Shown: piece after piece, positions 4,408-29,940 of the stretch
Numbering within the stretch: the stretch's first letter is position 1
Layout of the letters: each line of letters opens with the position of its first letter
Virus record (IMG/VR): IMGVR_UViG_3300047550_001654
Span: 1-33,091 of that record
DNA length: 33,091 nt
From: a virus
Direction: 5' to 3' (one strand)
Notes under the pieces: generated by a model
The model's input: the letters and a program-made list of their open reading frames with translations, nothing else
Told to the model about the DNA's origin: nothing
Databases searched by the model: none
Position numbers and translations under genes: made by a program

Positions 4408-4767
4408 TCACCCCTGAATAGGCTTAGGGTATTTAGCTTTCACCTCTAGCCTCTTAGATTTTAATTGATTCAAAGCCTCTTCTCCACCATCAAAATACGC
4501 ATTGAGGAAATCTTCAGCACTTGGGTATTCTGACATCCTTTTGATGATGCAATCTTTTAAATTATGCTCATAGGTAACGTCTTGAATCTCGATCGTGTAT
4601 TCTGCCGGAAGCTTGTTACCAGTAGGATTCCCATCTTGATCAAGCTCATCACGCTCTGGAAGTCCCCAAAGATTTTTTTGAATACAGTCCTGGATCCATA
4701 AAGTAGGATCATCCATTTCTGCCATGTATTGAGCACCGTTATTTCTATTTATAATAACTCTTTTCAT
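4408..4767 (-). CDS. Fibre-associated protein, possible tail-fibre assembly factor
   Basis: 119 residues, mixed alpha/beta, acidic middle, basic end. The segment RMSEYPSAEDFLNAYFDGG resembles the R..EYPS...QLDALW motif frequent in small proteins encoded straight after phage fibre genes. Its ATG overlaps the fibre stop codon as TAATG, typical of a co-translated fibre and chaperone pair. Role as chaperone or small fibre-bound subunit is inference from motif and position. Confidence 0.6.
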   Translation of the reverse strand: MKRVIINRNNGAQYMAEMDDPTLWIQDCIQKNLWGLPERDELDQDGNPTGNKLPAEYTIEIQDVTYEHNLKDCIIKRMSEYPSAEDFLNAYFDGGEEALNQLKSKRLEVKAKYPKPIQG

Positions 4768-10578: not shown

Positions 10579-10826
10579 TTTTTTTTTGGGTTAGTAACGA
10601 ACTCAAGGAAATCAAAAAAATCGTCTGTGTCAAAGCTTAGAAGAGCTTCTTTTGGAAGTCCTAAGCCAGAGAACCAATTAGCGTAAAGCTCGATTGCTTC
10701 TTCAGCTTTTGATTCTTTTAGCTTTTCTGTGAACTCTTGACGTTCACCTATCGACGGACACTTCATCTCATAAGATTGCCCGTCGATGGTTACTTTAATG
10801 ATCTTCTTTTTTGCTACGAACTCCAT
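10566..10826 (-). CDS. Tail-assembly chaperone, short form (G-like)
   Basis: 86 residues, starting with VAKKKIIKVTIDGQSYEMKCPS, then an acidic helical part (FLEFVTNPKKKSQN at the end). It lies between the tail tube and the tape measure, where the G-like chaperone is found in siphophages. AGGAG sits 7 nt before the ATG. Its last codons run through an A9 tract where part of the ribosomes should slip into the -1 frame. Most product is expected to be this short form. Confidence 0.8.
   Translation of the reverse strand: MEFVAKKKIIKVTIDGQSYEMKCPSIGERQEFTEKLKESKAEEAIELYANWFSGLGLPKEALLSFDTDDFFDFLEFVTNPKKKSQN
10578..10584 (-). promoter_or_regulatory. -1 ribosomal frameshift slippery heptamer A-AAA-AAG
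   Basis: On the minus strand CCC is followed by nine A and a G. In the chaperone frame this reads CCA AAA AAA AAG, so the heptamer A-AAA-AAG is in register for -1 slippage, among the most efficient sites in bacteria. The zero frame stops four codons later at 10566, while the -1 frame stays open for 98 codons. Confidence 0.85.
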
Positions 10827-17106: not shown

Positions 17107-17330
17107 TACTTGCTTCCCTCAAGCTCTTTTAAAGCTGTGCGATCGTCCATGTTCTCATAGAACCATGCTACCCATTGTTTACGGCCATTCATTTCAACAT
17201 ATTGAATATCGAAATAGCTGACTCGCGCTCCAAGTCTAGCGTTAGTTAATAGCATTAACCGCCGTAACCCCATTGGAGTCACGGCGGTAATGAAGTTAGG
17301 AATCGCAGTCGGTAAAGTATCTAACCTCAT
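17106..17330 (-). CDS. Small protein after the capsid gene, unknown
   Basis: 74 residues, basic N-terminal half and aromatic C-terminal half (WVAWFYENMDDRTALKELEG). No family recognised. It follows the capsid gene by 15 nt with an AAAGGGAT ribosome site. Head-completion or connector proteins usually sit here, but nothing in the sequence proves that role. Confidence 0.6.
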   Translation of the reverse strand: MRLDTLPTAIPNFITAVTPMGLRRLMLLTNARLGARVSYFDIQYVEMNGRKQWVAWFYENMDDRTALKELEGSK

Positions 17331-17345
17331 GCTATCCCTTTAAGA

Positions 17346-25968: not shown

Positions 25969-25985
25969 GAAATTCCTTTTTTAAT

Positions 25986-26058
25986 CAGCCGATGAAGGAA
26001 TCGAACCTTCGACCAGGCGTTTTTGTTCGCCTTACTCTAACCACTGAGCTAATCGGCT
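25986..26058 (-). tRNA. tRNA-like gene with deviant anticodon loop, amino acid undetermined
   Basis: 73 nt. Acceptor AGCCGAT/ATCGGCT, D arm GCTC/GAGT with G18-G19, anticodon stem AGGCG/CGCCT, variable loop GGTC, T arm GAAGG/CCTTC with loop TTCGATT, discriminator G, no encoded CCA. The elbow (G15 with C48, TTC in the T loop) is canonical. The anticodon loop is AACAAAAA: eight bases, and no U at the usual position 33. A read as CAA would name Leu, but a class I tRNA with a short variable loop does not fit Leu. It may be a degenerate or decoy tRNA, or a sequencing error in the A run. Confidence 0.65.
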
Positions 26059-26103
26059 GTACATGATCGCATCAATGAAACTGTTATAATCAAGCAATGC
26101 AAT

Positions 26104-27363: not shown

Positions 27364-27407
27364 CGAGCAAGGAAAAATGATAAGAAATTATCAGCAATCC
27401 TTGCCCG
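27364..27407 (+). ncRNA. Compound stem-loop in the divergent control region
   Basis: On the plus strand GCAAGGA (27367-27373) pairs with TCCTTGC (27398-27404), then a 4x4 internal loop (AAAA against GCAA), then TGATAA pairs with TTATCA and closes a GAAA tetraloop at 27384-27387. A strong terminator follows 9 nt later. It could be the body of a short terminated RNA, or part of an attenuated leader of the early genes. Expression in either direction is not shown. Confidence 0.45.
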
Positions 27408-27415
27408 ATTGCTTG

Positions 27416-27444
27416 CGGGAAGATCACACCTTCCCGTTTTTTTT
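27416..27444 (+). terminator. Rho-independent terminator, plus strand
   Basis: Perfect 7-bp stem CGGGAAG/CTTCCCG, 7-nt loop (ATCACAC), then eight T. It faces rightward and lies 126 nt before the first early gene. It would stop plus-strand transcripts that come from the left through the compound stem-loop, either a short RNA or antisense reads across the initiator gene, before they enter the early genes. Confidence 0.8.
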
Positions 27445-27472
27445 ATTATAAATTAAAACAATTAAAGTAAAC
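27445..27472 (-). promoter_or_regulatory. Possible leftward promoter for the replication and late genes
   Basis: On the minus strand GTTTAC (27472-27467) and TATAAT (27450-27445) are 16 bp apart. Transcription would start near 27438, so the leader would begin with the CGGGAAG hairpin and then the compound stem-loop before the initiator gene. The -35 box is weak, and the region is AT-rich, which makes chance matches likely. Confidence 0.35.
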
Positions 27473-27500: not shown

Positions 27501-27531
27501 TGTGCTATATAGTGCACTAATCAATTATAAT
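27501..27531 (+). promoter_or_regulatory. Possible rightward early promoter with palindromic operator-like site
   Basis: TATAAT at 27526-27531 lies 38 nt before the first early ATG. Just upstream is the perfect 10-bp palindrome TAGTGCACTA (27510-27519), next to GTGCTATATA, where a regulator could bind. I see no good -35 box, so an extra activator or a phage-specific polymerase factor may be needed. Weak evidence. Confidence 0.3.
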
Positions 27532-27569: not shown

Positions 27570-27866
27570 ATGGAAAATAAGAAAAAAGACATTGGGGCTA
27601 TTTGGGTTAAATCTGGTCAGTACGGAGATTATCTCTCCATCCAGATTGAGATCAACGGAGTTAAACATAACTTCACAGCTTTCCCAAACAAATACAAAGA
27701 GCCAGGCGATAACAAGCCATCTTATCGAATCCCTGAGCCAAAAACTAAAGATGATGGGCAGTCATCATATCAATCTAAAATAGCCTTGGTGAAAGAATAT
27801 CAAGCTAAGAAGCCAGCCACTCAAAAGCCTTTAACTGATATCGAATCTGAAGATTTTCCGTTTTAA
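27570..27866 (+). CDS. DUF736-like small protein with SSB-type acidic tail
   Basis: 98 residues from the ATG at 27570; a TTG two codons upstream is unlikely to be used. The fold pattern (IGAIWVKSGQYGDYLSIQIE, then FPNKYKEPGDNKPSYRI) resembles DUF736-type small beta proteins. The last residues SEDFPF are acidic and end in Pro-Phe, the same plan as the tip of SSB proteins that recruit replication and repair partners. It is the first gene of the early arm. It may coat or mark single-stranded DNA, or mimic the SSB tail; binding is inference. Confidence 0.65.
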   Translation: MENKKKDIGAIWVKSGQYGDYLSIQIEINGVKHNFTAFPNKYKEPGDNKPSYRIPEPKTKDDGQSSYQSKIALVKEYQAKKPATQKPLTDIESEDFPF

Positions 27867-27870
27867 AAAA

Positions 27871-28392
27871 ATGAGTGGATTAAGAACTGGTTATCCTGGA
27901 TTAACTCATACCGCAAAAAATATTGCTGAATTTATTGGCGAATGTGATGTTTTTTGCGAACCATTTGCAGGACTTGGTAGAGTTTCAAAGCATATTAAGG
28001 CAAAAAAATATGTTTTAAATGACATGAGCGATTATTCGATCAATTTTTTAAAACAAAACTTTAAAAACGCAATAATAACTCAAAAGGATTTTGTAGATTG
28101 TATTTTAGAAAATGATTCAAAAAATACTACATTTTTAATAGATCCACCATGGGCAAGAAAAGATTATGCTGATAATCCAAATACATTTTGCGATCGTGGA
28201 GTAGGAGAATATTATAAAAAGTTAGTTGAGATTGTTCCAAAACTTAATGGGCGATGGTTTGTTGCTGGGCGAGCTTCTGGAGGATCAAGAAGTACAGTAA
28301 CCGTGTATTTTAAACATTATCAATCAAAAATAATGGAATCAGAAAGAACAATAAATGGACATAAAATTAAAACTAAACTATTTTTTAAATAA
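27871..28392 (+). CDS. Dam-like (D12 class) DNA adenine methyltransferase, AT-rich
   Basis: 173 residues. Motif I CEPFAGLGRV (residues 29-38) binds SAM, ND at 50-51 fits motif II, and DPPW (91-94) is the catalytic motif IV with Trp in place of Tyr. The usual N-terminal GGK of this class is only partly seen, and the target-recognition insert is short against Dam (about 270 residues). GC is near 30% over 480 nt that I counted, against about 42% around it, and no ribosome site is visible before the ATG. Both suggest recent transfer. It may protect phage DNA from host restriction. Confidence 0.8.
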   Translation: MSGLRTGYPGLTHTAKNIAEFIGECDVFCEPFAGLGRVSKHIKAKKYVLNDMSDYSINFLKQNFKNAIITQKDFVDCILENDSKNTTFLIDPPWARKDYADNPNTFCDRGVGEYYKKLVEIVPKLNGRWFVAGRASGGSRSTVTVYFKHYQSKIMESERTINGHKIKTKLFFK

Positions 28393-28397
28393 TTATT

Positions 28398-28470
28398 TTG
28401 CCTGAAAGCAAGCAAGCCACGGCGGTAAGTGTAACCGAAAGGAAACACAACCTCGATCATATCGCCGTGG
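28398..28470 (+). ncRNA. Structured RNA element with nested GNRA stem-loop
   Basis: A hairpin TTGC/GCAA (28398-28411) comes first. Then an 8-bp closing stem CCACGGCG (28417-28424)/CGCCGTGG (28463-28470) holds an inner stem GTGT/ACAC, a 2x2 A/A internal loop, and CC/GG capped by a GAAA tetraloop (28437-28440). A 14-nt single strand closes the junction. It ends 12 nt before the next ATG, where no other ribosome site is seen, so it could be a leader switch or a separate small RNA. I match it to no known riboswitch. Confidence 0.6.
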
Positions 28471-28482
28471 TATTATTATCTC

Positions 28483-28722
28483 ATGAGACGCTTTAAGTAT
28501 TTTATATGCGAGCATGATTTAATAAAGTTAGCCAAAGATGATCTAGCTTGCGTTAAGTGGTATCGTAAAAAGCCTAAATTATGTGACGATCCGCATTGCA
28601 CTGAAGAGATCATTGAACTATCGATAACGATCATTCAGACTAAAAAAGATGCTGCCGAATCAAGTGCGAATAAAACCACGCGTTACGTACGAAATAGTAT
28701 ACCAAGACGTTATAAAAAATGA
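28483..28722 (+). CDS. Small basic protein with cysteine pairs, unknown
   Basis: 79 residues. C9, C23, C34 and C39 (with His10 and His38 near) could bind a metal, as in KLCDDPHCTEEI. The C-terminus is basic (RYVRNSIPRRYKK). It has no Shine-Dalgarno sequence except GTGG in the 3' arm of the preceding RNA stem. Its last 74 nt overlap the start of the next gene in another frame. No family recognised. Confidence 0.55.
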   Translation: MRRFKYFICEHDLIKLAKDDLACVKWYRKKPKLCDDPHCTEEIIELSITIIQTKKDAAESSANKTTRYVRNSIPRRYKK

Positions 28723-28927
28723 CCCTAACTGTCTTGGCTTATGCGATCCAAATACCAGACATATTTATATTAAAACTAATCAATCTAAACAAAATATAAT
28801 TAAATGCTTTATTCACGAATGGCTTCACTCTGCAGAAGCAGAATTCGATATAAAAATACCTCACGAAAGCATTTATAAATTAGAAGATGCAATTTATAGA
28901 TTTTTAACTTTGAACAAGTTTATCTAG
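28649..28927 (+). CDS. Small HExxH metalloprotein, SprT/minor-peptidase-like
   Basis: Up to 92 residues. CLGLCDPNTRHIYIKTNQSK leads into FIHEWLHSAEAEF with HEWLH at residues 56-60, a classical zinc-binding helix, and a C-terminal helix. The protein is too short for a full protease, but stand-alone versions are common in phages and bacteria and are often called phage metallopeptidases. The ATG at 28649 has no good ribosome site; a GTG at residue 6 is another choice. Activity is not certain. Confidence 0.65.
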   Translation: MLPNQVRIKPRVTYEIVYQDVIKNDPNCLGLCDPNTRHIYIKTNQSKQNIIKCFIHEWLHSAEAEFDIKIPHESIYKLEDAIYRFLTLNKFI

Positions 28928-28995
28928 CTTTTTTCATTATAAAACTTGCAATTCCTTACCGATCAGTCACGCTTTAGGTATTGGGGGTTATCATA

Positions 28996-29940
28996 ATGGC
29001 TGACTTAAAAAAACAGCAGGAGCTGATTAACAAACTTAAGGATCTGGCTGTAGAACTTGGCCGCACTCCTTACTGGCATGAGATCAAAGAGATCGTAAGT
29101 AATAATCAAGTTTACTCAAATTTCGGTAGCCTTCCAGTATTCATCCAGGCTGCGGGACTTGAGCCAGCTCCAAGAACGAAAAAACTAACTAACGAAATAT
29201 TTCGCGTCGATATCGAGCAGCATCTCGAAGAGCACGAAGATCGCACGATTAAAAAGCGTAAACCATACCCACGCATTGCTTGCCTTGGGGATCTCCATGA
29301 ACCTTTTAGCCATGCCAATCTAAAACAGGATTTTAAACTATTCGTCGAGAAGTTTAAGCCTGAGTACATCATCCAGCTAGGCGATGCCATGGACCAATAC
29401 TCAGCCGCTAAGTTTCCTCGCTCTCACAACGTATTTACTCCAAAGCAAGAAGAGGAACTTGCTAAGAAAAACATGAACGAGTTTTGGTCAGAGATGCAAA
29501 AGGCAGCTCCCAAAGCTAAGATGATTCAGCTTCTTGGAAATCATGATATCCGACCACTTAAAAGAACATTGGAAGTAATGCCAACGATGGAGCATTGGAT
29601 TGAAAAATACTTCCAGGATCTTTACACCTTTGAAAATGTTCACACTGTGATTGATCCACGTGAAGAGTATTTAATCGAAGATATTGCCTTTCACCATGGC
29701 TATCGCTCTAAGCTCGGCGATCATCGCGATTATATGCACATGAACTTTGTCGGAGGCCATACGCATAGAGGCGGAGTCGTTTACCGTAATATTAAAAACA
29801 CCGTACTGTGGGAGCTTAACTGCGGACTCGCTGGAGATCCTACAAGCAAGGGGTTATCTTACACTAATCAACGCATGAACGATTGGACTTTAGGCTGGGG
29901 TTGTATTGACGAATACGGTCCAAGATTTATAGGTTACTAA
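28996..29940 (+). CDS. Calcineurin-like metallophosphoesterase with homing-endonuclease-associated repeat
   Basis: 314 residues from the ATG at 28996; a TTG five codons upstream is ignored because GGGGG lies at the right distance for the ATG. Residues 22-56 (LGRTPYWHEIKEIV, then FGSLPVFIQAAGLEP) are a homing-endonuclease-associated repeat, a small DNA-binding module. The catalytic part shows GDLH (98-101), GDAMD (129-133), GNHD (181-184), HHG near 233-235 and GHTH (254-257), the full two-metal set. It may act on DNA ends or nucleotides, similar to SbcD-type enzymes in mechanism, but the substrate is unknown. Confidence 0.88.
   Translation: MADLKKQQELINKLKDLAVELGRTPYWHEIKEIVSNNQVYSNFGSLPVFIQAAGLEPAPRTKKLTNEIFRVDIEQHLEEHEDRTIKKRKPYPRIACLGDLHEPFSHANLKQDFKLFVEKFKPEYIIQLGDAMDQYSAAKFPRSHNVFTPKQEEELAKKNMNEFWSEMQKAAPKAKMIQLLGNHDIRPLKRTLEVMPTMEHWIEKYFQDLYTFENVHTVIDPREEYLIEDIAFHHGYRSKLGDHRDYMHMNFVGGHTHRGGVVYRNIKNTVLWELNCGLAGDPTSKGLSYTNQRMNDWTLGWGCIDEYGPRFIGY

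What the first reader, a model, noticed from the sequence alone, without database searches (positions are those of the whole stretch)
28398..28470. Undescribed-looking structured RNA before an early gene
A GC-rich 8-bp stem in AT-rich surroundings encloses a second stem with a tandem A/A internal loop and a GAAA tetraloop. The 3' arm lies next to the start codon of a gene with no other ribosome site. It fits no riboswitch class I know.
Basis: partly seen in the sequence, partly recalled or inferred. Interest (0 to 1): 0.65.

Follow-up and report, generated by a model that had tools for sequence, protein, structure and literature searches.

The report
Covarying RNA element before phage gene
In the early operon of an uncultured phage, a small folded RNA sits just before the start of an uncharacterised gene, and a related phage keeps the same fold with compensating mutations, so it is a real undescribed RNA element that probably controls that gene, though how it works has not been shown.

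Summary
Window 28398-28471 folds as P1 (UUGC/GCAA), a 12-bp P2, a 3' asymmetric loop AACCUCGAUCA, P3, an AA/AA loop and a CC-GAAA-GG cap. It ends 11 nt before the ATG of a 79-aa gene that has no Shine-Dalgarno sequence.

A related phage contig (L002) has the same element in the same place. P2 carries four compensatory double substitutions plus one compensated inserted pair, with no uncompensated change; P3 also covaries. Loop motifs AACC...GGAA and AACCUCGA are unchanged. The GAAA tetraloop is not conserved (ACAAAA in L002), so it is not essential. Two conserved G.U pairs point to a + strand RNA.

Rfam has no family for either copy. Scans of viral, genome, phage and plasmid collections found no third copy; one scan was truncated. 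A third phage (L205) has the same gene order but only a simple hairpin there.

Best explanation: a cis-acting leader element, probably a protein-bound operator controlling translation of the 79-aa gene. Rivals are an RNase III processing hairpin and a put-like antiterminator. Mechanism is inferred; the structure is well supported, though by only two sequences.

The parts
28398..28415 (+). P1: small hairpin UUGC...GCAA shortly after the upstream gene's stop codon
   Evidence: Predicted fold; L002 also has UUGC(AUAUC)GCAA at the same place. Weak on its own.
28416..28427 (+). P2 5' arm GCCACGGCGGUA
   Evidence: Pairs with 28460-28471. Against L002: 4 double substitutions, one inserted pair, no uncompensated change.
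28429..28448 (+). P3 and cap: GUGU-AA-CC-GAAA-GG-AA-ACAC
   Evidence: Fold. L002 has GCU-AA-CC-ACAAAA-GG-AA-AGC: stem covaries, AACC and GGAA kept, GAAA not kept.
28449..28459 (+). 3' asymmetric internal loop AACCUCGAUCA
   Evidence: AACCUCGA is identical in L002 while the flanking stems changed.
28460..28471 (+). P2 3' arm UAUCGCCGUGGU
   Evidence: See the P2 5' arm.
28472..28482 (+). 11-nt AU-rich spacer AUUAUUAUCUC between P2 and the start codon; no Shine-Dalgarno
   Evidence: L002 has the same length and the same AUUAUUAU; anti-SD pairing is low among the phage's genes. Could also contain part of a -10-like TATTAT.
28483..28722 (+). ORF79, uncharacterised protein downstream of the element (conserved C9, C34, C39; basic tail)
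   Evidence: Homologues in L002 (49%) and L205 (44%); no Pfam or PHROG match; predicted fold has no match.
28649..28927 (+). HExxH metalloprotease-like ORF overlapping the end of ORF79 in another frame
   Evidence: phrog_1233 E 4e-11; weak DUF6782 match; conserved in L002.
27571..27866 (+). First gene of the early operon (weakly SSB-like); directly precedes the element in L002
   Evidence: weak SSB PHROG match, E 0.08.
27871..28392 (+). Adenine methyltransferase gene lying between the first early gene and the element, only in this phage
   Evidence: PF02086 E 1.8e-9; absent at this place in L002 and L205.

Best explanation
The element is a cis-acting leader RNA in the phage's early mRNA. P2 (about 12 bp) and P3 present two conserved single-stranded patches, AACCUCGA in the asymmetric loop and the AA/AA-flanked CC/GG cap, to a specific partner. 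The partner is most likely a protein, perhaps phage-encoded and possibly the basic, cysteine-containing ORF79 product itself. Because the helix ends exactly 11 nt before the start codon of a gene with no Shine-Dalgarno, binding or unfolding there would set how often ORF79, and the overlapping metalloprotease gene, are translated. Shown: the fold's conservation by covariation, its place, the missing Shine-Dalgarno, no match to known RNA families. Inferred: protein recognition, translational control and the identity of the partner.
For: The same architecture occurs in two phages. P2 has 4 double substitutions and 1 pair indel, all compensated; the chance for the substitutions alone is about 1.9e-4. 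Covariation vanishes when one arm is slid by 1-3 columns. Loop sequences stay fixed while stems change, as expected for a recognised RNA. Two G.U pairs kept in P2 favour a + strand RNA over a DNA dyad. The P2-to-ATG spacing and the AUUAUUAU spacer are identical. In the window a methyltransferase gene lies upstream, yet the element still adjoins ORF79. ORF79 has poor anti-SD pairing and one of the least accessible start regions among 45 compared.
Against: Only two copies are known. A third phage with the same gene order (L205) has just a simple hairpin there, so the element is not needed for ORF79 expression in general. No binding partner is identified; the ORF79 fold has no match. Other genes in the phage also lack a strong Shine-Dalgarno. 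The -10-like TATTAT 6 nt before the ATG could make the ORF79 mRNA leaderless.
Confidence: 0.45

Rival explanations
1. RNase III processing signal between genes, as in T7 early mRNA: an irregular hairpin with an asymmetric internal loop is cut in the loop, separating the mRNA of the first early gene from that of ORF79 and setting their stabilities.
For: Intercistronic place shortly after a stop codon; long lower stem, asymmetric 3' loop and short upper stem in both copies. The resemblance to T7 sites is from general knowledge.
Against: The upper stem is short (3-4 bp plus a 2-bp cap). Strict conservation of AACC...GGAA and AACCUCGA is more than a double-strand-specific nuclease is expected to need.
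Confidence: 0.2
2. A put-like antiterminator: the nascent RNA binds RNA polymerase and lets it read through downstream terminators in the early operon.
For: Two adjacent hairpins, about 75 nt, in an early operon; HK022 put RNAs are about 70 nt with two stem-loops downstream of early promoters (PMC9378689).
Against: No + strand intrinsic-terminator-like site downstream in the operon in the window. P1 here is a very small hairpin while put has two long stems. The model finds nothing in the 18.8 kb of HK022 fetched. The element lies beyond the first gene(s), not near the promoter.
Confidence: 0.1
3. Transcription terminator or attenuator between the first early gene and ORF79, with P2 followed by UAUUAUUAU.
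For: Strong GC-rich hairpin followed by an AU-rich tract; z -3 to -4.
Against: No run of U; the terminator scan does not call it in either phage. A terminator does not explain conserved loop sequence.
Confidence: 0.08
4. A DNA element: a dyad operator or extended -10 promoter (TGGTATTAT, 6 nt before the ATG) driving a leaderless ORF79 mRNA.
For: TGGTATTAT then 6 nt then ATG in the window and L002; L205 has TAATAT at the same distance; no Shine-Dalgarno.
Against: No -35 match and the scan does not call it. A protein reading DNA half-sites would conserve their sequence, whereas P2 changed sequence and kept pairing. TANNNT is common in AT-rich DNA.
Confidence: 0.1

Closest known systems
HK022 put RNA (phage antiterminator)
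   Same: About 70-75 nt, tandem hairpins with internal loops, in a phage early operon
   Different: P1 is tiny; lies after the first gene(s); no downstream + strand terminators found; the model finds nothing in the part of HK022 searched
T7-type RNase III processing hairpins
   Same: Intercistronic irregular hairpin with an asymmetric internal loop
   Different: Fixed loop sequences in both phages; short upper stem; host and cleavage unknown
Phage translational operators (protein-bound leader hairpins)
   Same: Hairpin with conserved unpaired bases just upstream of a start codon
   Different: The helix stops 11 nt before the ATG rather than containing the ribosome site; no binding protein known
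Rfam c4-2 RNA (RF02944)
   Same: Best weak phage-type hit of the window copy (13.7 bits)
   Different: Far below the gathering score of 41, E 3.5, and absent for the L002 copy: chance

Membership tests
Any Rfam 15 family | Covariance-model score above the family's gathering cut-off | tested here: not met
   Only a tRNA passes in the window; permissive scans of both copies give chance hits.
Conserved structured RNA element | Compensatory base changes in homologues | tested here: met
   4 double substitutions and one pair indel in P2, P3 also covaries, none uncompensated; two sequences only.
put antiterminator | Two stem-loops of put type with sequence similarity to known put | tested here: inconclusive
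   No model match in HK022 22000-40751 and no blastn match of the window copy in phage records, but put itself was not located in HK022 and the model rests on two sequences.
put antiterminator | Readthrough of downstream terminators | not testable with these tools
   No + strand intrinsic terminator-like site found downstream in the window; function needs an assay.
RNase III processing signal | Cleavage by RNase III in the internal loop | not testable with these tools
   Only the shape agrees.
Intrinsic terminator | GC-rich hairpin followed by a U run | tested here: not met
   Not called in the window or L002; the tail is UAUUAUUAU.
Riboswitch | Ligand-binding aptamer with an expression platform | not testable with these tools
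   No Rfam riboswitch match; no ligand test possible.
Translational operator | A protein binds the leader and changes translation | not testable with these tools
   Place, spacing and missing Shine-Dalgarno are consistent.

The most novel reading that the evidence does not exclude
A new class of phage leader RNA that itself recruits or gates the ribosome at a start codon without a Shine-Dalgarno, through the conserved AACCUCGA loop, in response to a phage or host factor.
Probability: 0.12. Interest if true: 0.75.

Novelty: new member of a known kind. Interest (0 to 1): 0.42.

Why it matters
Structured RNAs in the early operons of uncultured phages are little catalogued. This one has a fold supported by covariation, fixed loop motifs and a defined neighbouring gene, so it can be tested directly and used as a seed for further searches. 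It also flags an uncharacterised early protein (ORF79) worth testing as a regulator.

Tried and rejected
Exact search for the inner hairpin in viral contigs: none. AACCTCGAN{4,20}GGTATTATTAT found only the L002 contig. ORF79 searches found L002, plus L205 through its upstream gene; genome contigs, phages and plasmids none. The metallophosphoesterase search led to L003, L124, L126 and L127, whose records show neither ORF79 nor the element; none in genome contigs. 'Relatives' cannot be drawn for a virus record. The weak c4-2 hit was rejected because L002 lacks it. A coding explanation for AACCTCGA was rejected because it sits in different frames relative to ORF79 in the two phages. Locating put within HK022 by inverted self-similarity was inconclusive. 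Fold search of ORF79 gave nothing.

Full report
What is there. The window is a 33-kb uncultured phage contig (a virus record). Late genes run on the minus strand. An early operon runs on the plus strand from about 27571: a small, weakly SSB-like protein, a D12-type adenine methyltransferase, ORF79, a metalloprotease-like ORF, a metallophosphoesterase with an HNH-associated repeat, and an ERF annealing protein. The element lies between the methyltransferase stop (28392) and the ORF79 start (28483).

Fold. 28398-28415 forms a small hairpin P1. 28416-28427 pairs with 28460-28471 (P2). Inside are P3 (GUGU/ACAC), an AA/AA loop, CC/GG and a GAAA loop. On the 3' side only, 11 nt (AACCUCGAUCA) are unpaired. 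The energy is -27.6 kcal/mol, z -4.07. In a scan of the window on both strands several places score better, so stability alone would not be convincing.

Homologue. A search with the metallophosphoesterase found contig L002 (82% identical). Between the stop codon of its first early gene and its own ORF79 (49% identical) it carries the same element, which folds the same way when folded alone (L002 about 4423-4491, z -3.05). By hand alignment P2 changes at four pairs (C-G to U-A, G-C to C-G, G-C to A-U, U-A to G-C) and gains one C-G pair, with no uncompensated change. Random placement of the same number of substitutions in the 3' arm gives a fully paired P2 in 380 of 2,000,000 trials. RNAalifold independently finds 4 pairs changed on both sides, two in P2 and two in P3, and sliding one arm by 1-3 columns abolishes covariation. 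The column-shuffle control in that tool is weak with two sequences (32 of 500). The unpaired motifs AACC...GGAA and AACCUCGA are identical, while the tetraloop is not (GAAA against ACAAAA). Two P2 pairs are G.U in both phages; on the other strand or as DNA they would be mismatches, so a plus-strand RNA is favoured.

Placement. P2 ends exactly 11 nt before the ATG in both phages, with the same AUUAUUAU start to the spacer. In this window a methyltransferase gene lies between the first early gene and the element, while in L002 the element directly follows the first early gene, so it stays with ORF79. ORF79 has almost no anti-SD pairing and one of the less accessible start regions. A third phage, L205, has the same gene order with ORF79 at 44% identity, but only a simple hairpin in a 39-nt gap, so the element is not universal for this gene.

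Search for more. No third copy was found.

Known families. No Rfam family passes for either copy. The put antiterminator of HK022 (PMC9378689) shares size and a two-hairpin plan but not the long first stem, and no downstream terminator is seen here. A T7-type RNase III site shares the irregular intercistronic hairpin; I cannot test cleavage.

Conclusion. A genuine, undescribed, covariation-supported RNA element, best read as a cis-acting leader controlling ORF79. The structure is well supported for two sequences; the mechanism is inference.

Noticed in passing
window 27393-27450: Two adjacent hairpins in the gap between the divergent operons; the second (GCGGGAAG...CTTCCCG plus a run of T) looks like a plus-strand terminator lying upstream of the early operon. 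L002 has a different hairpin at the same place.
   Followed up: partly
window 27503-27518: Imperfect palindrome GTGCTATATAGTGCAC just before a conserved TTATAATAATAAG stretch ahead of the first early gene: likely repressor operator and early promoter.
   Followed up: no
window 17252-17341, minus strand: Most stable fold of the window (z -6.9): ACCGCCGT/ACGGCGGT hairpin shortly after the start of the gene beginning at 17330.
   Followed up: no
window 10711-10801: Strong predicted structure on both strands (z about -5.7) near the start of the gene beginning at 10826.
   Followed up: no
window 25985-26059, minus strand: A tRNA gene for which ARAGORN reports an unusual four-base anticodon (caaa).
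   Followed up: no
window 28649-28722: The metalloprotease-like ORF starts inside ORF79 in another frame; the overlap is also seen in L002 and L205.
   Followed up: partly
window 28981-29940: Metallophosphoesterase with an N-terminal HNH-associated repeat; close relatives (70-82%) sit in differently organised phages.
   Followed up: partly
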